Assembly: GCA_902790215.1 (NCBI GenBank)
Contig: CADAQX010000010.1
Coordinates: 31,332-95,331 of the forward strand
DNA from: an uncultured Bacteroidota bacterium
Lineage (GTDB): Bacteria > Bacteroidota > Bacteroidia > Bacteroidales > P3
Reading direction: 5' to 3'
DNA length: 64,000 nt
The notes below the pieces were generated by a model, which ran no database searches, was not told the DNA's origin, and saw nothing but the letters and a program-made list of their open reading frames with translations. Position numbers and translations under genes: made by a program. Of this stretch, positions 29,482 through 37,248 are shown piece by piece (position 1 is the first letter of the stretch; each line of letters starts with the position of its first letter).

Positions 29482-29502
29482 TCCCAAACCGGATACCACA
29501 AC

Positions 29503-29538
29503 ACAAGCCCGCACACCCCAGCGCGGGCTTGTTTTTTT
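29503..29538 (+). terminator. Intrinsic terminator after outer membrane gene
   Basis: acaagcccgc pairs with gcgggcttgt, followed by a run of eight T. Confidence 0.9.
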
Positions 29539-29773
29539 AACCCAAATCCAATCCTCAACAAGTCGAAGACCACTCGTCACCCGTCCCTCGCCTCCCCACC
29601 CGCAGCAGTTCACGTTTTCGGCTGCAAAGATACAAAAGTCTCCTACAACGCATCCCTCAACTTACCGATACTTACGCAAAGAGCCCGCAACCCCCTCATC
29701 CCCAACCCACATTTTTTTCGCCACCGCCGACAAATCCCCCTCACAAACCATACACAAATTCAAAAAATATTCG

Positions 29774-29781
29774 TATCTTTG
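29774..29781 (+). promoter_or_regulatory. Probable cas9 promoter -7 box
   Basis: TATCTTTG 150 bp before the cas9 ATG. A clear -33 TTG is not visible. If used, it gives a leader of about 140 nt that is complementary to the whole minus-strand tracrRNA-like element. Confidence 0.6.
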
Positions 29782-29811
29782 CAAAATCAAAAGAGGGAAT
29801 GCAAGCCATTC

Positions 29812-29892
29812 ACAAAACAATGAACCCTACGCAAAGCGCAGGGTTCCAGAAATCTTCGGCTTATAGCCTTATTGTGAAAAGCTTAAAAAGAT
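29812..29892 (-). ncRNA. Second tracrRNA-like RNA, divergent from cas9
   Basis: Read on the minus strand: TTTTTAAGCTTTTCACAA, then TAAGG-CTATAAG-CCG, then a hairpin GAACCCT...AGGGTTC (29822-29846) and a T-rich ATTGTTTTG. Its first 20 bases differ at three positions from the anti-repeat of the tracrRNA at 37130-37211, the following AAGG...CCG mini-hairpin is conserved in shape, and the -7 box TATCTTTG (29897-29904) sits at the same distance as in that gene. So it looks like a tracrRNA paralogue with a changed scaffold. It is antisense to the cas9 leader. Whether it binds Cas9, regulates it, or is a decaying copy cannot be told from sequence. Confidence 0.6.
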
Positions 29893-29896
29893 GATG

Positions 29897-29929
29897 CAAA
29901 GATAATGATTATTTTTGAAACAACAACAT
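29897..29929 (-). promoter_or_regulatory. Promoter of second tracrRNA-like element
   Basis: Minus strand: TTG, 19 bases, then TATCTTTG (29897-29904), matching the -33/-7 arrangement of Bacteroidales promoters. The predicted RNA start is about 5-6 bases further left. Confidence 0.65.
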
Positions 29930-29930
29930 T

Positions 29931-32900
29931 ATGAGTCAAAAAATATTAGGAATAGACCTTGGCACCAGTTCGTTAGGAATCGCTGTAAGAGACACAGACC
30001 TCGGCAAAAACATTGCCGAGCAGTTGGAATATTACACGTCCATAATTTTTCCCTCAGGGGTTGGAACAGACAAAAGTGGGGAATATTCATACGCCGCCAA
30101 GAGAACCAAATTCCGTTCTACAAGACGACTCTATCAATCACGAAAATACAGGATATGGGCCACACTGCGCCTACTTATTGAGCACGGATGCTGTCCTTTA
30201 AAAGTCGAAGAACTTGACCGATGGGCTCGGTACGACAAGGAAAAAGGTTTGAAACGGCAATACCCCATCGATGCCAAGGTGTTCGAACAATGGGTTAGGC
30301 TGGACTTCAACTGCGACGGTATGCCCGAATACAAAAGCCCCTACCAACTTCGGAAAGAACTCATGGAGCATGAACTGGATTGGAACAACCCCACAGACCG
30401 CTACAAATTCGGACGTGCCATGTACCACATAGCCCAACGTCGTGGTTTTAAAAGCAGCAAGGGCGAAACCCTGAAAGAATCCAAGGAGGACGCAGATGTT
30501 GACACCATAGACATCAGTGGTGAGATGAAGAAATCGGAAGAAAAAACATCCCACAAGTTGAGTGAATACATGGTCGAACACAACCTCCCGACTGCGGGAT
30601 GTGCTTTTGCAAGACTGGAACAAGAAGGTGTTCGCGTGAGAAACAGCGAGTACAAAGCCGTGCAGTCACAATACCGCGATGAGGTGGATAAGATTTGCAA
30701 ATACCAGCATATTGACGAGATTGCACCAGAATTACACCGAAGCCTCATCAGTACAAAAAAGGGAGAAGGCACAATCTTTTACCGCCGCCCACTGCGGTCG
30801 CAGAAAGGGCTGGTGGGAAAATGCACACTGGAGCCTACTCATCGTCGCTGCCCCATTAGCCATCCCGACTTCGAGGAATTCAGAGCCTTGTCGTTTATCA
30901 ATAACATCAAGTACCGCCTAAGCGCCGAAGAAGAATGGAAGACCCTAACAGCGGACGAACGTCAAGAGCTTTTCGAAAGCCTTTTCACCCGTGCCAATGC
31001 AACATTCAAATTTGAGGACATCCGCAAATGGTTGGAGAAAAAGCTCCAGTCGTCGCATCTTGATTACAACAACCGAACCATCAACTACCGAGACCACACC
31101 ACTGTGGCGGGATGTCCCGTAATCAGTCGCTTGAAGAAGATATTAGGTGACAACTGGCGTTCCAGCACAATTATCACAGAGAAATCACGCACCAACTTCC
31201 ACACAGGTGAAGTCCACAACGTTAGTTACAATTACACAGACATCTGGCACTTAGCGTACTGCAGCGACGATTTCGAGGAACTGGCTGAATTCTCCGAAAA
31301 ACAGATGAGGCTTACCAAAGAGCAATGCAGTCAAATGACAAGACTATGGAGCTCCATCCAAGAAGGGTATGCCTCGCTCAGCCAAAAAGCCATACACAAC
31401 ATTTTGCCATTCCTCCGCAAAGGCATCATCTACAGTGAAGCTGTAGCCTTTGCCAAGATACCCGACATCATAGGACACAACCGATGGGAGCAGCAGGGCA
31501 ACGACATCATGGAGGGATTACGGCACCATATGCAAGAAAACGAGTACCGCCGGATGATATACGGTATCACCAATACCCTTATCGCCAACTACAAAACAAG
31601 AGTACTTGATGAACAAGAAAGCCGACACAACACCGACTACGTACTTAACGACACAGACAAAGAAAAAATACGCAATTGCATCATCGAAACACTCAGCGCA
31701 AGTCGATGGAATAGCCTTTGCCAACAAGAAAAAGCCAACCTGCAACAAAATGTAGAACATCTCTATCAACAGTTTTTTGCGAGTTCCGAGAAAGAATACT
31801 GCAAACTACCCCGTCAGAGCAATGCGATGAAGTCATATATGATGGAGCAATTTCCCGATATTGACAAAAAACTGTGGGACACCCTTTACCACCATTCTCA
31901 AATAGATATGTTCCCCCACGGAAAAGAGATGACAGAAGAGGTGGATGGAAGAATAATGCAATACTTCCAACTGGGCAAGCCCGATATAGGGGCAATCAAG
32001 AACCCGGTGGCACTACGAGCCCTACACGTCCTCCGGCGGGCTGTCAACGAACTGCTGAAACATGGCATTATCGACGAGACAACCCGTGTGGTGGTCGAGA
32101 CCGCTCGGGAGATGAACGATGCCAATTGGCGTAAGGCTATAGAAATGTATCAGAAGGCACGTGAGAAAGAGAACGATGCCATAATCGATATAATCAAAGA
32201 ATTCCGTCCCAACTACACCGATGCCGACATCGAGAAAGGCAGACTGCTATTTGAACAGAACATTGTTCCTCAGACTACAAGAACTCAAAGAGAAAAAGCC
32301 GAGAAGTTTGCCCTTGACATGCAGAAATACAAACTCTGGCAAGAACAAAAATTCCAATGCCTGTACACTGGAAAGTTCATCAGTCTTTCTGACCTTTTTG
32401 CAGACAACACGGTTGACATCGAGCACACTATACCACGAAGCATCTCCTTCGACGACTCCTTGGCAAATAGAACAGTGTGTGACGCTCACTTCAACCGTTC
32501 TGAAAAAGGGAATCGCATTCCTTCGGAACTATCCAACTACGAAGACATCAAAGACCGCATCAAACCATGGGAAGAAAAAGTAATACACATTAAGTCACAG
32601 ATTGAGCTATGGAAAGGCAAAGCCAAGACCGCCGCCACGATGGAACGCAAGAACGAATGCCTGCAACAGAAGCACCTGTGGGAATTGGAAAAGAACTACT
32701 GGGAAACAAAACTCAACACTTTTACTGTGCAGAAAGACGACCTCGACCTCGGTTTCCGCAACAGTCAACTGGTTGACACTCGTATCATCACCAAATATGC
32801 CTTTCACTATCTAAAATCCGTTTTCTCCCGGGTGGATGTACAAAAAGGCAGCATTACCGCCAACTTCCGCAAGATTCTTGGAATACAGAGCGCAGACGAA

Positions 32901-34082
32901 AAGAAAGACCGCCAGAAACATTCGCACCACGCAATTGATGCCGCCGTTCTCACCATGATACCTCCCGCTGCTCAACGCGACAGAATGCTGGAACTTTTCT
33001 ATCAACTGCAAGAGGCCGACGACATGGAAAAGGGTGCCATCCAACTAAGGCTAGAGAAAGAGGTAAACTCATGCAGCATTGGAACCATCACTGGACTAGT
33101 GGACTCCATTGAACAGAACATTCTGGTCAACCATATCTCCAAAGACCAGACTCTTACACCCGCCAAGAAACCCAGACGCAACGGAAAGCACATAATCAAA
33201 GGACAATGGTTACAGGGCGACTCCATACGAGGCAGTCTCCACAAAGACACCTTCTATGGAGCAATAGACAACGACGGGGCAAAACGCATGGTTGTGCGGA
33301 AACAACTGAAAGATCTTGGCGAAAAGGACATCCAATCCATTGTTTCCAAAGCCGTGGCCGATGCTATCGAGACCCAAGTCAATCAATACATGGCCAACGA
33401 AGGTATATCTTTCACTAAAGCATTAGAGAAAGACTTTTTCATGCTTGACAAAGACGGGCGCCCCATTTCACACGACAAGAATGGGCGTCCATTGCTCCCC
33501 ATCAGACACGTGCGATGCTATGCCAAGGCCGGGCGTGGAGAACTGGGATATGACACTGTGCTGAAAATAAAGCAACAGACCTACCAATCCAAGCATGAGT
33601 ACAAAAACCTGTACTATGTGCAGAACGACGACAACTACCTTTGCCTTTATTATGAAGGATATGCCAAAGGAAAATTCCAACGGGCGTTCCGGCTGGTAAA
33701 CTATTTCGACATTGCCCAATTGCAACCCCAAAGTGTATCAGAATTGGTTTCAGAACCCGAGTTCGCCACGTATGAGAAAAACGCAAGGATGCCACTCACA
33801 GCCATCATTAAGAAGGGGGCACGAGTACTTCTATACAAAAACATCCCCGAAGAAGTCCGCGACCTTGACAAAGAGGAATTAAGCAAACGGCTCTATGTCG
33901 TTTACAAATTCAATGTTATTGGAACACCTTACATATATCTCAGACACCACTTAGAGGCTCGAAAAGAAACTGACTGCGACACAAAAGATAGCTTCCTCTC
34001 CCTTAAAGCATCTAACTTCAAAGCCCTGATTGAGCATTACGATTTCGAAGTGGATGCTTTGGGAAATATTTACTTCAAATAG
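29931..34082 (+). CDS. cas9: CRISPR-associated endonuclease Cas9, type II-C-like
   Basis: A 1383-residue Cas9. RuvC-I ILGIDLGTSSLGIA gives D9; RuvC-II VVVETAREMND gives a glutamate near 722; the HNH site VDIEHTIPRS gives H832 with NRTVCDAHFNRSEKGNR following; RuvC-III HHAIDAAVLTM gives H1000 and D1003. All catalytic residues are present, so it should cut both strands of target DNA guided by crRNA and tracrRNA. The length and the gene set cas9-cas1-cas2 without csn2 or cas4 fit subtype II-C as found in Bacteroidota, whose Cas9s are often long. ATG 29931 begins three residues before the RuvC lead. The PAM is not readable. A toxin-antitoxin pair follows after 72 bp on the same strand. Confidence 0.97.
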   Translation: MSQKILGIDLGTSSLGIAVRDTDLGKNIAEQLEYYTSIIFPSGVGTDKSGEYSYAAKRTKFRSTRRLYQSRKYRIWATLRLLIEHGCCPLKVEELDRWARYDKEKGLKRQYPIDAKVFEQWVRLDFNCDGMPEYKSPYQLRKELMEHELDWNNPTDRYKFGRAMYHIAQRRGFKSSKGETLKESKEDADVDTIDISGEMKKSEEKTSHKLSEYMVEHNLPTAGCAFARLEQEGVRVRNSEYKAVQSQYRDEVDKICKYQHIDEIAPELHRSLISTKKGEGTIFYRRPLRSQKGLVGKCTLEPTHRRCPISHPDFEEFRALSFINNIKYRLSAEEEWKTLTADERQELFESLFTRANATFKFEDIRKWLEKKLQSSHLDYNNRTINYRDHTTVAGCPVISRLKKILGDNWRSSTIITEKSRTNFHTGEVHNVSYNYTDIWHLAYCSDDFEELAEFSEKQMRLTKEQCSQMTRLWSSIQEGYASLSQKAIHNILPFLRKGIIYSEAVAFAKIPDIIGHNRWEQQGNDIMEGLRHHMQENEYRRMIYGITNTLIANYKTRVLDEQESRHNTDYVLNDTDKEKIRNCIIETLSASRWNSLCQQEKANLQQNVEHLYQQFFASSEKEYCKLPRQSNAMKSYMMEQFPDIDKKLWDTLYHHSQIDMFPHGKEMTEEVDGRIMQYFQLGKPDIGAIKNPVALRALHVLRRAVNELLKHGIIDETTRVVVETAREMNDANWRKAIEMYQKAREKENDAIIDIIKEFRPNYTDADIEKGRLLFEQNIVPQTTRTQREKAEKFALDMQKYKLWQEQKFQCLYTGKFISLSDLFADNTVDIEHTIPRSISFDDSLANRTVCDAHFNRSEKGNRIPSELSNYEDIKDRIKPWEEKVIHIKSQIELWKGKAKTAATMERKNECLQQKHLWELEKNYWETKLNTFTVQKDDLDLGFRNSQLVDTRIITKYAFHYLKSVFSRVDVQKGSITANFRKILGIQSADEKKDRQKHSHHAIDAAVLTMIPPAAQRDRMLELFYQLQEADDMEKGAIQLRLEKEVNSCSIGTITGLVDSIEQNILVNHISKDQTLTPAKKPRRNGKHIIKGQWLQGDSIRGSLHKDTFYGAIDNDGAKRMVVRKQLKDLGEKDIQSIVSKAVADAIETQVNQYMANEGISFTKALEKDFFMLDKDGRPISHDKNGRPLLPIRHVRCYAKAGRGELGYDTVLKIKQQTYQSKHEYKNLYYVQNDDNYLCLYYEGYAKGKFQRAFRLVNYFDIAQLQPQSVSELVSEPEFATYEKNARMPLTAIIKKGARVLLYKNIPEEVRDLDKEELSKRLYVVYKFNVIGTPYIYLRHHLEARKETDCDTKDSFLSLKASNFKALIEHYDFEVDALGNIYFK

Positions 34083-34154: not shown

Positions 34155-34409
34155 ATGACAGCAACACAGCTAAACACAATGAACACGGAGCTCTGGCAGA
34201 GCATCGGAGCCATTGCCGACAACGAAACACTCATGCGCCGCCTCACACGCTATGCCAAGCGTCTGGTCAAAGAGAAAGAGGACCCCACACATATGACCAA
34301 AGAGGAGTTCTTCGCCCATGTGGACGAGGCAAAAAAGGAATATGAAGAAGGTAAATTCAAATCATTCAACAACCTCGAGGAAATGAACGCCTGGCTTAAC
34401 TCGCTCTAA
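34155..34409 (+). CDS. RelB-like antitoxin inside the cas operon
   Basis: An 84-residue acidic, helical protein: NTELWQSIGAIADNETLMRR, LTRYAKRLVKEKEDP, MTKEEFFAHVDEAKKEYEEG and a final NLEEMNAWLNSL. This matches the small antitoxins that precede YoeB/Txe toxins in Bacteroidota: an N-terminal dimer part followed by a disordered toxin-neutralising tail. Antitoxins of this kind usually bind the toxin and repress their own promoter. ATG 34155 is used; ATG 34179 (MNTELW) is an alternative. The stop is two bases before the toxin start. No promoter box is apparent in the 72 bp after cas9, so it is probably transcribed with cas9. Confidence 0.82.
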   Translation: MTATQLNTMNTELWQSIGAIADNETLMRRLTRYAKRLVKEKEDPTHMTKEEFFAHVDEAKKEYEEGKFKSFNNLEEMNAWLNSL

Positions 34410-34411
34410 TC

Positions 34412-34684
34412 ATGTACACCATCAACTATACCCAACGAGCCCAGTCTGACTTTATCAAACTGAAAAGAAACGAGCCTTCAAGTTTCAAAAAACTAATCAA
34501 ACTCCTCAACGAACTTGCCGAACATCCCCGTACTGGCACTGGACGTCCCGAACAGTTGAAAGGTGACCGAAGCGGGCAATGGAGCCGCCGAATCACTGAA
34601 AAGCACCGGCTTGTATATGAAATCCACGACACCGAAGTGGTAGTGTTGGTGCTTACCTCCTACGGACATTACGACGAGCCATGA
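34412..34684 (+). CDS. YoeB/Txe-type mRNA interferase toxin inside the cas operon
   Basis: A 90-residue RelE-fold toxin: YTINYTQRAQSDFIKLKRNEP, KKLIKLLNELAEHPRTGTGRPEQLKG, GQWSRRITEKHRLVYEI and a final VLVLTSYGHYDEP. The GxGxPExL...WSRRIxxKHRLVY pattern, with the glutamate, arginine, histidine and C-terminal tyrosine-histidine that form the RNase site, is diagnostic for YoeB/Txe, which cleave mRNA on the ribosome. The toxin looks intact. Its stop TGA (34682-34684) overlaps the cas1 ATG (34681) as ATGA, so cas1 translation is probably coupled to toxin translation. Such a pair between cas9 and the adaptation genes is not part of the standard type II-C operon. Confidence 0.9.
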   Translation: MYTINYTQRAQSDFIKLKRNEPSSFKKLIKLLNELAEHPRTGTGRPEQLKGDRSGQWSRRITEKHRLVYEIHDTEVVVLVLTSYGHYDEP

Positions 34685-35589
34685 TTAAACGCACACTCTG
34701 TTTCTCCAACCCGGCCTACCTGTCCATGCAGAACAGGCAGTTGTTGGTGCGACTGGAAAAACACGGCTCCGAACCCGAGCGACAGACCACCATACCCATC
34801 GAGGATATCGGCATTGTGGTGCTCGACAACCCGCAAATCACCCTCACCCACGGCCTCATGGCCGCCCTGCTCGACAACAACGCCTCCGTCATCACCTGCG
34901 ACAGCCACCACATGCCCGTGGGGCTTATGCTCCCGCTCGAAGGCCATACCGTGCAGAGCGAACGTTTCCAAGAACAGCTGTCGGCCTCCCTGCCCCTGCG
35001 CAAACAGCTATGGCAGCAGACCGTGCAACAGAAAATCCTCAACCAAGCCACCCTGCTACGCGAACTGCACGGTGCCGAAACAGGCAACATGACATCGTGG
35101 GTCGCTGAAGTGCGCTCCGGCGACAGCACCAACCTCGAAGGCCGCGCCGCCGCCTACTACTGGACCCAACTGCTGCCCGACATACCCGGCTTCTCGCGCA
35201 GCCGCGATGGTATGTACCCCAACAACTTCTTCAACTACGGCTATGCCATCCTGCGCGCCGTCATCGCCCGTGCCTTAGTAAGCAGCGGCCTCCTCCCCAC
35301 CCTCGGCATCCACCACCACAACCGCTACAACGCCTACTGCCTGGCCGACGACATCATGGAGCCTTACCGTCCCTACATAGACCGTCTCGTCATACAAACC
35401 ATCCGACAGTTTCCCCAAACCGCCGAAGTCACCACCGATATCAAACGCTGTCTGCTCACCATCCCCACCCTCGAGGTGCACATCGGCGGCCAACGCAGCC
35501 CCCTCATGGTGGCTGCCAGCCAAACCACCGCCTCCCTTGCCCGCTGCTTTGCTGGCGAGAGCCGTAAAATCTCCTACCCCGAAATGTGA
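34681..35589 (+). CDS. cas1: CRISPR integrase Cas1 (type II)
   Basis: A 302-residue Cas1 that, with Cas2, inserts new spacers at the array. It begins MIKRTLCFSNPAYLSMQNRQL, with IPIEDIGIVVLDNPQITLTHGLMAALLDNNASVI in the N-terminal beta domain (segment near residues 40-75). The metal-binding residues of the C-terminal domain are visible: NLEGRAAAYYW (Glu near 151), LGIHHHNRYN (His near 210) and DDIMEPYRP (Asp/Glu near 222-227). Type II Cas1 proteins commonly look like this. The start overlaps the toxin stop, and the stop TGA overlaps the cas2 ATG by one base, so translation is coupled along the operon. Confidence 0.97.
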   Translation: MIKRTLCFSNPAYLSMQNRQLLVRLEKHGSEPERQTTIPIEDIGIVVLDNPQITLTHGLMAALLDNNASVITCDSHHMPVGLMLPLEGHTVQSERFQEQLSASLPLRKQLWQQTVQQKILNQATLLRELHGAETGNMTSWVAEVRSGDSTNLEGRAAAYYWTQLLPDIPGFSRSRDGMYPNNFFNYGYAILRAVIARALVSSGLLPTLGIHHHNRYNAYCLADDIMEPYRPYIDRLVIQTIRQFPQTAEVTTDIKRCLLTIPTLEVHIGGQRSPLMVAASQTTASLARCFAGESRKISYPEM

Positions 35590-35921
35590 TGGACCGCTTT
35601 AGTGAATACCGCATCATGTGGCTGCTTGTATTCTTCGACCTGCCCACCGACACCAAAAAGGAGCGCAAAGCCGCTGCCGACTTCCGCAAACACCTTCTGG
35701 CCGACGGATTCACCATGTTTCAGTTCTCCATCTATGTGCGCCACTGTGCCAGCCGCGAAAACGCCGACGTGCACCTACGTCGCGTCCGCTCCATGCTGCC
35801 CCTCTATGGACAGGTGGGCTGCCTAACCATCACCGACAAGCAATTTGCCGACATAGAACTATATGTCTGCAAAAAGGAAGTGCCACCCAACGCCCCCGGC
35901 CAACAGTTAGAACTATTCTGA
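35589..35921 (+). CDS. cas2: CRISPR adaptation protein Cas2
   Basis: A 110-residue Cas2, which forms the central dimer of the Cas1-Cas2 integrase. Signatures: MWLLVFFDLPTDTKKERKAA with the conserved Asp after the first strand, FRKHLLADGFTMFQFSIYVRHC typical of type II Cas2, and a final TDKQFADIELYV. ATG 35589 is chosen because it gives MDRFSEYRIMWLLV; a GTG three bases earlier is also possible. It is the last gene of the cas operon: a bidirectional terminator lies 66 bp on, followed by the repeat array. Confidence 0.95.
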   Translation: MDRFSEYRIMWLLVFFDLPTDTKKERKAAADFRKHLLADGFTMFQFSIYVRHCASRENADVHLRRVRSMLPLYGQVGCLTITDKQFADIELYVCKKEVPPNAPGQQLELF

Positions 35922-36071: not shown

Positions 36072-37033
36072 GTTGTTTATCGATTATGTCAATGTTCTCT
36101 TTTCAAGCAATTCACAACATGGGGCAAAGATAGCAAACTTTTCGGACAGTTGTTTATCGATTATGTCAATGTTCTCTTTTCAAGCAATTCACAACAGCTC
36201 TTAGAGAAGGTTTTGAAGCTGGTATGTTGTTTATCGATTATGTCAATGTTCTCTTTTCAAGCAATTCACAACATGGCATTAATAACGGTGATTATTCACC
36301 TGTTGTTTATCGATTATGTCAATGTTCTCTTTTCAAGCAATTCACAACCTTTGAGGACTTCACCTGTCAGCTTGGCCAGTTGTTTATCGATTATGTCAAT
36401 GTTCTCTTTTCAAGCAATTCACAACATCATACCCCAGAGCCTGAATAAAAGGCATGTTGTTTATCGATTATGTCAATGTTCTCTTTTCAAGCAATTCACA
36501 ACAGACTGCAGACGCTGACCCTTGACTACTTGTTGTTTATCGATTATGTCAATGTTCTCTTTTCAAGCAATTCACAACACCGACGGCACTCGCCTCTCTA
36601 ATGATGAAGTTGTTTATCGATTATGTCAATGTTCTCTTTTCAAGCAATTCACAACTTTACGGGGGGAGAGCAGACCGACCACACCGTTGTTTATCGATTA
36701 TGTCAATGTTCTCTTTTCAAGCAATTCACAACGACAACCTTGCAAGCATTCTCAACTGCAATGTTGTTTATCGATTATGTCAATGTTCTCTTTTCAAGCA
36801 ATTCACAACTCTACTACAAATCCCGTTGAAAAGACAAATGTTGTTTATCGATTATGTCAATGTTCTCTTTTCAAGCAATTCACAACCTTTGACGGCTGTT
36901 GTCCTTGCGGAACGAGTTGTTTATCGATTATGTCAATGTTCTCTTTTCAAGCAATTCACAACTGGATAGAGGTGCTTGCTTCAGGGCAAAAGGTTGTTTA
37001 TCGATTATGTCAATGTTCTCTTTTCAAGCAATT
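36072..37033 (-). CRISPR. CRISPR array, 13 repeats of 47 bp and 12 spacers
   Basis: Repeats start at 36072, 36149, 36226, 36302, 36379, 36456, 36532, 36609, 36686, 36763, 36840, 36916 and 36993. Each is 47 bp with GTTGT/ACAAC ends and they look identical, except the last, which is cut at 41 bp (37033). Spacers are 29-30 bp. The minus strand is chosen as the crRNA strand because in that direction the repeat opens GTTGTGAATTGCTTGAAAAG, whose complement forms the anti-repeat of the tracrRNA at 37130-37211. Frames that run through the array only reflect its 77-bp period. Confidence 0.97.
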
Positions 37034-37129: not shown

Positions 37130-37211
37130 CAAAGACGACGGGGGATTTTGTCCCCCGCCCTCTTAGTAGTTTTCACAACGGAATAATCCTTATTGTGAAT
37201 TGCTTGAAAAG
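37130..37211 (-). ncRNA. tracrRNA
   Basis: On the minus strand: CTTTTCAAGCAATTCACAA is an exact 19-nt complement to the 5' part of the crRNA repeat; then TAAGG-ATTATT-CCG (nexus-like mini-hairpin), TTGTGAAAAC, and a strong hairpin GGCGGGGGA/TCCCCCGTC (37136-37159) that ends in GTCTTTG. A promoter lies directly upstream. The arrangement matches Bacteroidota type II-C tracrRNAs. It lies beyond the array rather than next to cas9 and points toward the array, so read-through into the array is possible. Ends are estimates. Confidence 0.88.
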
Positions 37212-37216
37212 TTTTA

Positions 37217-37248
37217 CAAAATTACAACTATTTTTTCATTCAGCAAAA
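37217..37248 (-). promoter_or_regulatory. Promoter of tracrRNA
   Basis: Minus strand: TTTTG (37244-37248), 19 bases, TAATTTTG (37217-37224). It fits the Bacteroidales -33/-7 consensus. The RNA would start near 37211. Confidence 0.75.

What the first reader, a model, noticed from the sequence alone, without database searches (positions are those of the whole stretch)
29774..29930. Second tracrRNA-like element head-to-head with cas9 and antisense to its leader
The minus strand has an anti-repeat that differs at only three of 20 positions from the main tracrRNA, an equivalent AAGG...CCG mini-hairpin, a terminator-like hairpin and a -33/-7 promoter spaced as in the main tracrRNA. It covers the cas9 5' leader. 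It could be a regulator of Cas9 level, comparable in spirit to the long tracrRNA of S. pyogenes that represses cas9, or a second scaffold with changed nexus. This pairing of two tracrRNA genes with one type II-C locus seems not to be standard.
Basis: partly seen in the sequence, partly recalled or inferred. Interest (0 to 1): 0.88.

Follow-up and report, generated by a model that had tools for sequence, protein, structure and literature searches.

The report
Cas9's own tracrRNA beside an inherited one
The element looks like the normal guide-scaffold RNA gene of this bacterium's Cas9, in its usual place next to cas9; the unusual part is that a second scaffold, typical of a different Cas9 family, remains at the far end of the same CRISPR locus, apparently because cas9 and its own scaffold were swapped in together.

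Summary
In detail: the minus strand at 29812-29893 carries a complete tracrRNA-like gene (promoter, anti-repeat, nexus, terminator) head-to-head with cas9 and antisense to its leader. The ranking "second" is reversed. This element (tracr1) lies at that place in 33 of 35 loci examined, window included, and in 10 of 10 of the genus; a published Bacteroidetes II-C tracrRNA has this position (PMC9067536). It is most likely the cognate tracrRNA of this Cas9. The array-side "main" tracrRNA (tracr2, minus 37134-37215) is the extra one. Its scaffold goes with an unrelated Cas9: 24 of 25 genus genomes with a strong match to that Cas9 carry it. Sister loci at the same chromosomal site hold that other cas9 without tracr1; alignments break at the cas9 promoter and resume at cas1, with 81-96% identity outside and none detected inside. 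Cas1 and Cas9 trees disagree. Best reading: a tracr1-cas9 cassette replaced another cas9 and left its tracrRNA behind. A tracr-L-like guide was not found. Overlap with a cas9-sense promoter is seen in 8 of 10 genus loci, so regulation stays possible. Whether tracr2 still works is open.

The parts
29812..29893 (-). tracr1: probable cognate tracrRNA gene of this Cas9 (predicted start 29891-29893, T-rich tail to 29812)
   Evidence: Sequence; present in 33 of 35 loci, window included; terminator-like hairpin
29897..29904 (-). tracr1 -7 box TATCTTTG; -33 TTG at 29924-29926
   Evidence: -7 box before tracr1 in 10 of 10 genus loci, 0.02-0.18 expected per strand; the full -33/-7 pattern in 5 of 10
29871..29890 (-). 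tracr1 anti-repeat; leaves a 2x2 UU/UU internal loop with the repeat
   Evidence: Loop in 9 of 9 genus loci with an array and 22 of 25 in all; duplex -24.2 kcal/mol
29858..29868 (-). tracr1 nexus GGCTATAAGCC
   Evidence: Its three outer G-C pairs are unchanged in 33 of 33 sequences
29822..29846 (-). tracr1 intrinsic-terminator-like hairpin
   Evidence: such a hairpin in 33 of 33; four aligned stem pairs hold in 29 of 29 ungapped rows with several pair types, 4 rows gapped
29774..29781 (+). cas9-sense -7 box TATCTTTG; would make the cas9 leader antisense to all of tracr1
   Evidence: Same arrangement in 8 of 10 genus loci; strict -33 in 3 of 10, not in the window; the L040 promoter is shared with the other cas9 in L114
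29931..34082 (+). cas9, 1383 aa, called lineage S here
   Evidence: NCBIfam TIGR01865, 423 bits
34681..35589 (+). cas1
   Evidence: TIGR03639, type II Cas1
35586..35921 (+). cas2
   Evidence: TIGR01573
36072..37033 (-). CRISPR array: 12 full 47-nt repeats plus a terminal repeat truncated on the tracr2 side; crRNA sense taken as minus from the anti-repeats
37134..37215 (-). tracr2: extra tracrRNA gene, scaffold type of other Cas9 lineages (anti-repeat 37211-37192, nexus 37189-37180, hairpin 37160-37134)
   Evidence: Core in 24 of 25 genus genomes with a strong Cas9b match; continuous pairing with the repeat, -29.0 kcal/mol
37217..37224 (-). tracr2 -7 box TAATTTTG; -33 TTTG at 37247-37244, spacer 19
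   Evidence: Read

Best explanation
The element is the cognate tracrRNA gene of the resident Cas9 (lineage S), in the position usual for that lineage: minus strand, starting about 40 nt upstream of cas9, with convergent promoters. Expected action: its anti-repeat pairs with the first 20 nt of the crRNA repeat, leaving a two-base internal loop; the duplex plus the GGCTATAAGCC nexus is what this Cas9 binds (inferred), and RNase III trims it (established type II pathway, not tested). The locus is a hybrid. tracr1 and cas9-S came in as one cassette between the old cas9 promoter and cas1, displacing a 1488-aa-type Cas9b whose tracrRNA (tracr2) lay at the far end of the array, outside the exchanged piece, and stayed. 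tracr2 still has promoter, anti-repeat, nexus and hairpin and pairs with the same repeats more strongly, so if transcribed it competes for crRNAs; probably it is non-cognate for the present Cas9. Shown: conservation, lineage association, breakpoints in two sister pairs, tree conflict. Inferred: transcription, binding, direction of the swap, fate of tracr2.
For: tracr1 upstream of cas9 in 33 of 35 loci examined, window included (not found in L044, L090), 10 of 10 in the genus, hairpins in 33 of 33. tracr2 core in 41 of 120 genus genomes, in 24 of 25 with a Cas9b match above 900 bits (presence in the genome, not always on the same contig). No tracr1 motif in the 20 tracr2 stretches fetched. Cas9-S and Cas9b align only in pieces, 24-29% identity in the three best. 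L040 vs L114: 95.7% over 3.6 kb on the left, the cas9 promoter shared (85% over 65 nt), no match over tracr1 and cas9, 91% from the first base of cas1; L035 vs L122: 88.9% and 81%, the same gap. On the Cas1 tree L040 is sister to Cas9b locus L114 (100/99) and all four hybrids fall in a clade of ten rows (95/91) whose other members are five loci with Cas9b and array-distal tracr2, and L050; the Cas9 tree separates the lineages. Holding the 11 Cas9b rows as one clade on the Cas1 tree is rejected, p 1.5e-48; the 9 S rows, p 0.046. S loci without tracr2 have Cas1 next to loci whose tracrRNA lies beside the cas9 start (L036 and L038 with L130, L131; L039 with L121). Cas9b not found in G000, G018, G021 (96-98% complete) apart from the HNH-region match of Cas9-S itself.
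Against: No RNA data. Direction of exchange not polarised (11 lineage changes on 24 labelled rows). AU result for the S rows borderline. The window's own left breakpoint is not resolved: its alignment to L122 stops before the promoter. L036 and L038 align to L130 only from cas1 on, so those are not clean in-place exchanges. L037 shares only the left neighbours; the 466-aa right neighbour is not in the 7 kb fetched beyond its array. The fourth hybrid (L040+L124) rests on two contig ends with one repeat. L116 and L123, with array-distal tracr2, have Cas1 in the wider group of L036 and L038. In the window, repeat base 15 (G) meets C in tracr2 but only a wobble U in tracr1, which could mean tracr2 is the one in use. 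L050, expected to have tracr2, shows none in the 137 nt before its contig ends.
Confidence: 0.82

Rival explanations
1. Both tracrRNAs serve this Cas9: tracr1 and tracr2 are alternative scaffolds that share one array, so loading depends on which is abundant.
For: tracr2 is complete in window, L035 and L037 and in the window its anti-repeat matches a repeat base that tracr1 meets only by a wobble.
Against: Four S loci with flank beyond the array (L036, L038, L039, L049) have no tracr2. In G021 the tracr2 hairpin is weakened (-10.5 against -20.2 kcal/mol in L114), and G172 and G489 keep only tracr2 remnants beside tracr1. Published work found dual-RNA exchange only between close systems (PMC3936727, abstract).
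Confidence: 0.15
2. tracr1 is also an antisense regulator of cas9: convergent transcription and a fully complementary leader tie the Cas9 level to the tracrRNA level.
For: Opposing -7 boxes flank tracr1 in 8 of 10 genus loci, so the cas9 leader would contain the whole complement of tracr1.
Against: L037 and L049 lack a strict cas9-sense box, and a strict -33 is seen in only 3 of 10; overlap may simply follow from compact packing; no expression data.
Confidence: 0.25
3. The element is a tracr-L-like natural single guide that directs Cas9 to repress cas9.
For: It overlaps the cas9 control region and has a tracrRNA scaffold.
Against: The predicted start lies at the anti-repeat, leaving no guide. 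Longest match of the 119 nt upstream of tracr2 to the cas9 upstream region is 8 nt (shuffled mean 8.3, largest 14); upstream of tracr1 it is 10 nt (the -7 box itself) and 12 nt inverted (an A/T-rich promoter stretch), both within the shuffled range.
Confidence: 0.03
4. tracr2 is an inert relic or a mild competitor for crRNAs (a refinement of the best explanation, not an alternative to it).
For: Different nexus; stronger pairing with the repeat; weakened hairpin in G021 and remnants in G172 and G489; S loci without it.
Against: Complete in three of four hybrids; matches the window's repeat exactly.
Confidence: 0.55

Closest known systems
CRISPRCas_38 tracrRNA model, Bacteroidetes type II-C (PMC9067536, passages read)
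   Same: Structured tracrRNA, typically within 100 bases upstream of cas9, 578 of 599 instances in Bacteroidetes, only in II-C; tracr1 has this position.
   Different: The model itself could not be run here; the passages read do not mention a second tracrRNA in the same locus.
Riemerella anatipestifer CRISPR1 tracrRNA (PMC5006608, passages read)
   Same: Anti-repeat upstream of cas9; 47-nt repeats; cas9, cas1 and cas2 beside the array.
   Different: One 16-nt anti-repeat reported in the passages read.
cas9 replacement in Flavobacterium psychrophilum II-C (PMC10309648, passages read)
   Same: In-place exchange of one cas9 for another between tracrRNA and cas1, attributed to homologous recombination.
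   Different: There the new cas9 sits between tracrRNA and cas1 with no second tracrRNA mentioned in the passages; here the incoming cas9 brings its own tracrRNA and another stays at the far end.
Clade-specific guide RNA scaffolds (PMC7606464, passages read)
   Same: tracrRNA clusters follow Cas9 clades; clade X, with 45-50-bp repeats, typically has fully complementary duplexes without a bulge, as in tracr2.
   Different: Whether Cas9b belongs to clade X was not tested.
tracr-L of S. pyogenes (PMC11417352, passages read)
   Different: tracr-L comes from one tracrRNA locus with two promoters and acts as a single guide; here there are two genes with different scaffolds and no guide.

Membership tests
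tracrRNA of a type II-C system | Anti-repeat complementary to the repeat of a linked array | tested here: met
   18 of 20 positions pair, counting wobbles, with a 2-nt internal loop
tracrRNA of a type II-C system | Nexus hairpin after the duplex and a terminator | tested here: met
   by sequence and pairing only
tracrRNA of a type II-C system | cas9-cas1-cas2 without csn2 or cas4 | tested here: met
   cas9, cas1, cas2 identified; no other ORF of 150 aa or more lies between cas9 and the array besides cas1; not every ORF around was scanned
tracrRNA of a type II-C system | Transcribed, bound by Cas9, needed for crRNA maturation | not testable with these tools
   No RNA data
Bacteroidetes upstream-of-cas9 tracrRNA (CRISPRCas_38) | Position within about 100 bases upstream of cas9 | tested here: met
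   Anti-repeat 41-60 nt upstream of the cas9 ATG
Bacteroidetes upstream-of-cas9 tracrRNA (CRISPRCas_38) | Match to the published covariance model | not tested
   Model not available here
tracr-L-like repressor | 5' extension that acts as a guide to the cas promoter | tested here: not met
   No match beyond the shuffled range; start sites predicted, not mapped
Hybrid locus by cas9-tracrRNA cassette exchange | Flanks homologous, cas9 segment not, in sister loci | tested here: met
   for L040/L114 and L035/L122; for the window itself only roughly (window/L122, left edge not resolved)
Hybrid locus by cas9-tracrRNA cassette exchange | Cas9b absent elsewhere in the genome | tested here: met
   Only HNH-region matches of Cas9-S itself in G000, G018, G021; no match in G040, which is 74% complete

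The most novel reading that the evidence does not exclude
cas9 and its head-to-head tracrRNA form a portable cassette that is exchanged in place while cas1, cas2, array and repeats stay. Loci with two tracrRNAs are footprints of such exchanges, and the retained tracrRNA is kept because it makes one array readable by two Cas9 lineages or throttles loading of the present one by competing for crRNAs.
Probability: 0.2. Interest if true: 0.75.

Novelty: new variant of a known kind. Interest (0 to 1): 0.52.

Why it matters
It suggests how a CRISPR locus can change its nuclease without losing its memory: if the incoming Cas9 brings its own scaffold RNA and the repeats suit both, the old spacers may remain usable. 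It gives a rule for reading loci with two tracrRNAs (match nexus and duplex type to the Cas9 lineage; position alone misleads), which matters for anyone building single guides from such loci: the array-side tracrRNA here would probably be the wrong choice. It also supplies natural cases for testing Cas9-tracrRNA orthogonality and crRNA competition, and an antisense overlap between tracrRNA and cas9 leader, seen in 8 of 10 genus loci, to test.

Tried and rejected
Rejected: (1) tracr1 as a chance match (and conservation). (2) A tracr-L-like guide or a spacer directed at the cas9 control region: longest shared stretches lie within the shuffled range (12 spacers compared with window 29500-29960 only). 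(3) The second genomic hit of the element (C16) as another tracrRNA: only the promoter stretch matches. (4) Rfam for either RNA: no tracrRNA match. (5) Pfam Cas9_PI in the own genome: rang nowhere, controls included, so uninformative. (6) Selection on tracr2 after the swap: not decidable without dates; no test run.

Biases and dropped rows: of the 36 of 99 genomes with any match, only the ten best were taken further for tracr1. The 20 tracr2 stretches were picked by their tracr2 sequence, so the link of tracr2 to Cas9b rests on the separate protein search. L044 and L090 show no tracr1 by my motif; in L090 only 357 nt precede the ORF as called. Of the 41 genus genomes with the tracr2 core, 32 were looked at in detail; a naming slip skipped L093-L099, most of which came back through larger stretches, but G013 and G053 did not, and seven others were never fetched with their tracr2. 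Ten of the 32 had no array in the stretch held. In one search my trimming cut some hairpins short; redid the hairpin check row by row. One search printed most tracr2 twice because of an optional first letter. The Cas9 of L050 and L125 enter the tree as pieces.

Literature: nine of ten searches used. In their listings I saw no paper on two tracrRNA genes of different scaffold in one II-C locus, but the library holds only open-licence papers, listings are capped, and PMC4041416 and three more papers looked up by id or DOI were not held. PMC13431127 (scaRNA, passages) was seen and not used.

Full report
What is there. The window holds a type II-C locus: cas9 (29931-34082, 1383 aa), a toxin-antitoxin-like pair, cas1, cas2, an array of 12 full 47-nt repeats and one truncated repeat (36072-37033), and two tracrRNA-like genes, both on the minus strand. 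The one in the finding, here tracr1, lies at 29812-29893. The other, tracr2, lies at 37134-37215. Each has a Bacteroidetes-type promoter (-33 TTG or TTTG, 19 nt, TAnnTTTG; the consensus is recalled, and TAnnTTTG is also named in PMC10309648), an anti-repeat starting right after it, an AAGG..CC nexus and a terminator-like hairpin. The two anti-repeats differ at 3 of 20 positions. The 12-mer TTCACAATAAGG is found only at these two places in 64 kb, 0.01 expected.

Which one is primary. I took Cas9 relatives from 99 related genomes (36 with any match, the ten best used), 120 genus genomes (10 with a strong match, window's included), 393 order genomes (22 with a strong match, window's included) and the contig collection (2, one of them the same locus as G106), and read the region upstream of cas9. 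Of 35 distinct loci, window included, 33 have tracr1 upstream of cas9 on the opposite strand; L044 and L090 do not show it. All 10 genus loci have it. 33 of 33 have a terminator-like hairpin, and four aligned stem pairs hold in 29 of 29 ungapped rows although the bases differ. A tracr1 -7 box is present in 10 of 10 genus loci, a strict -33/-7 pair in 5 of 10. A published model describes a tracrRNA at this position in Bacteroidetes II-C systems (PMC9067536, passages), and Riemerella has its anti-repeat upstream of cas9 (PMC5006608, passages). So tracr1 is the standard tracrRNA. tracr2 is missing from four genus loci of this Cas9 with sequence beyond the array (L036, L038, L039, L049); in L050 the contig ends 137 nt beyond the array, and L051 is cut within cas9.

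Where tracr2 belongs. The core of tracr2 occurs in 41 of 120 genus genomes (up to 3 mismatches) and in 116 of 393 order genomes (24-mer, up to 2 mismatches). In the genus it follows another Cas9: 25 genomes have a match above 900 bits to the 1488-aa Cas9b of L114, and 24 of them carry the core somewhere (G017 does not). Fetched loci show it just upstream of that cas9 (opposite strand in L125 and L131, same strand in L119, L121, L127) or, in a subgroup, at the far end of the array (L114, L115, L118, L120, L122, L123, L128). A third Cas9 group of about 1350 aa also has it (upstream of cas9 in L113, L117, L130, L132; beyond the array in L116). Cas9-S and Cas9b align only in pieces, 24-29% identity in the three best. 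The scaffolds differ in more than the nexus: tracr1 leaves repeat positions 9-10 unpaired in 9 of 9 genus loci with an array and 22 of 25 overall (exceptions L003, L076, L085), while tracr2 pairs through there in 22 of 22 with an array.

Hybrid loci. Window, L035 (G040), L037 (G018) and, by inference across two contigs with the same repeat, L040+L124 (G021) have Cas9-S with tracr1 and also tracr2 at the far end of the array. Window, L035 and L040+L124 share both a 492-aa left and a 466-aa right neighbour with Cas9b loci that lack tracr1; L037 shares the left side only. Aligning L040 with L114 gives 95.7% identity over 3.6 kb on the left, a shared cas9 promoter (85% over 65 nt), no match through tracr1 and cas9, then 91% from the first base of cas1. 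L035 against L122 shows the same (88.9% and 81%). Window against L122 is more diverged (74-88%) and does not resolve the promoter edge. L036 and L038 align to L130, whose cas9 is of the third group, only from cas1 on (79% and 85%), so there the left side is not shared. The Cas1 tree puts L040 with L114 (100/99) and places L036, L038, L130 and L131, three Cas9 groups, in one tight cluster (99/98), while the Cas9 tree separates the lineages (the Cas9 tree by the quick method, with a long-branch warning between the lineages). Holding the 11 Cas9b rows together on the Cas1 tree is rejected (p 1.5e-48); holding the 9 S rows together gives p 0.046. Eleven lineage changes are needed on 24 labelled rows. 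cas9 has been exchanged repeatedly against cas1; which way each time is not settled.

Why some loci have two tracrRNAs. If the displaced cas9 had its tracrRNA beside its start, an exchange reaching past it removes both; L036, L038 and L039, whose Cas1 sit next to such loci (L130, L131, L121), have one tracrRNA. If it lay beyond the array, the exchange leaves it; the four hybrids fall in the Cas1 clade of five such loci (95/91). The sorting is not perfect: L116 and L123, with a distal tracr2, are in the wider group of L036 and L038, L049 stands alone, and L050, in the hybrid clade, cannot be judged. Of the 22 order genomes with this Cas9, 4 contain the tracr2 core: the window's; G293, with a tracr2-like unit at the end of cas9; and G172 and G489, with remnants without a recognisable anti-repeat next to tracr1. 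Cas9b is not detectable in G000, G018 and G021 beyond the HNH-region match of Cas9-S itself, nor in G040, which is only 74% complete; G043 has both lineages on separate contigs.

How it most likely works. tracr1 pairs with crRNAs and loads this Cas9. tracr2, if made, forms the stronger duplex with the same repeat (-29.0 against -24.2 kcal/mol) but carries another lineage's nexus, so it should compete rather than serve. Fonfara et al. report exchange only between closely related systems (PMC3936727, abstract), and Gasiunas et al. report that tracrRNA clusters follow Cas9 clades and that a clade with 45-50-bp repeats typically has duplexes without a bulge (PMC7606464, passages). Against simple decay, tracr2 is complete in three hybrids and in the window matches a repeat base that tracr1 meets only by a wobble; for decay, the G021 copy has a weakened hairpin. 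I leave this open.

Regulation. In 8 of 10 genus loci a cas9-sense -7 box lies beyond tracr1 (strict -33 in 3), so the cas9 leader would contain its full complement. Control of cas9 by tracr1 transcription or pairing is therefore possible and would be a trait of most such loci, not special to this one. A tracr-L-type guide was not found.

Known or new. In-place replacement of cas9 in a II-C locus is on record for Flavobacterium psychrophilum (PMC10309648, passages). In the listings of nine searches of the open-licence library I saw no report of cas9 moving with its own tracrRNA and leaving a second one behind, which is a limited search. I rate it a new variant of a known kind.

Noticed in passing
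window 34155-34681: A small ORF (no family match) followed by a Txe/YoeB-family toxin sits between cas9 and cas1; a similar pair lies between a Cas9b and cas1 in L123 (10066-10583).
   Followed up: partly
window 36119-36148: The spacer nearest cas2 contains GCAAAGATA, the complement of a Bacteroidetes -7 box; its 9-nt match to the cas9 region is within chance.
   Followed up: partly
L036 and L123 (genome G043): One genome carries two II-C loci of different Cas9 lineages whose repeats share their first 28 bases or so, so crRNAs could be shared.
   Followed up: no
L129 5035-9508 (genome G048): A Cas9b locus with only a short cas9 remnant, yet cas1, cas2 and tracr2 remain; my array detection found no array.
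   Followed up: no
L085 about 2830-2890: A tracr2 remnant beside tracr1 has a repeat-like insert (GTTGTGAATTGCTT) after its nexus.
   Followed up: no
L092 about 990-1060: tracr1 is followed directly by a tracr2 remnant that begins at the very end of what would be its anti-repeat, as if an exchange point lay there.
   Followed up: partly
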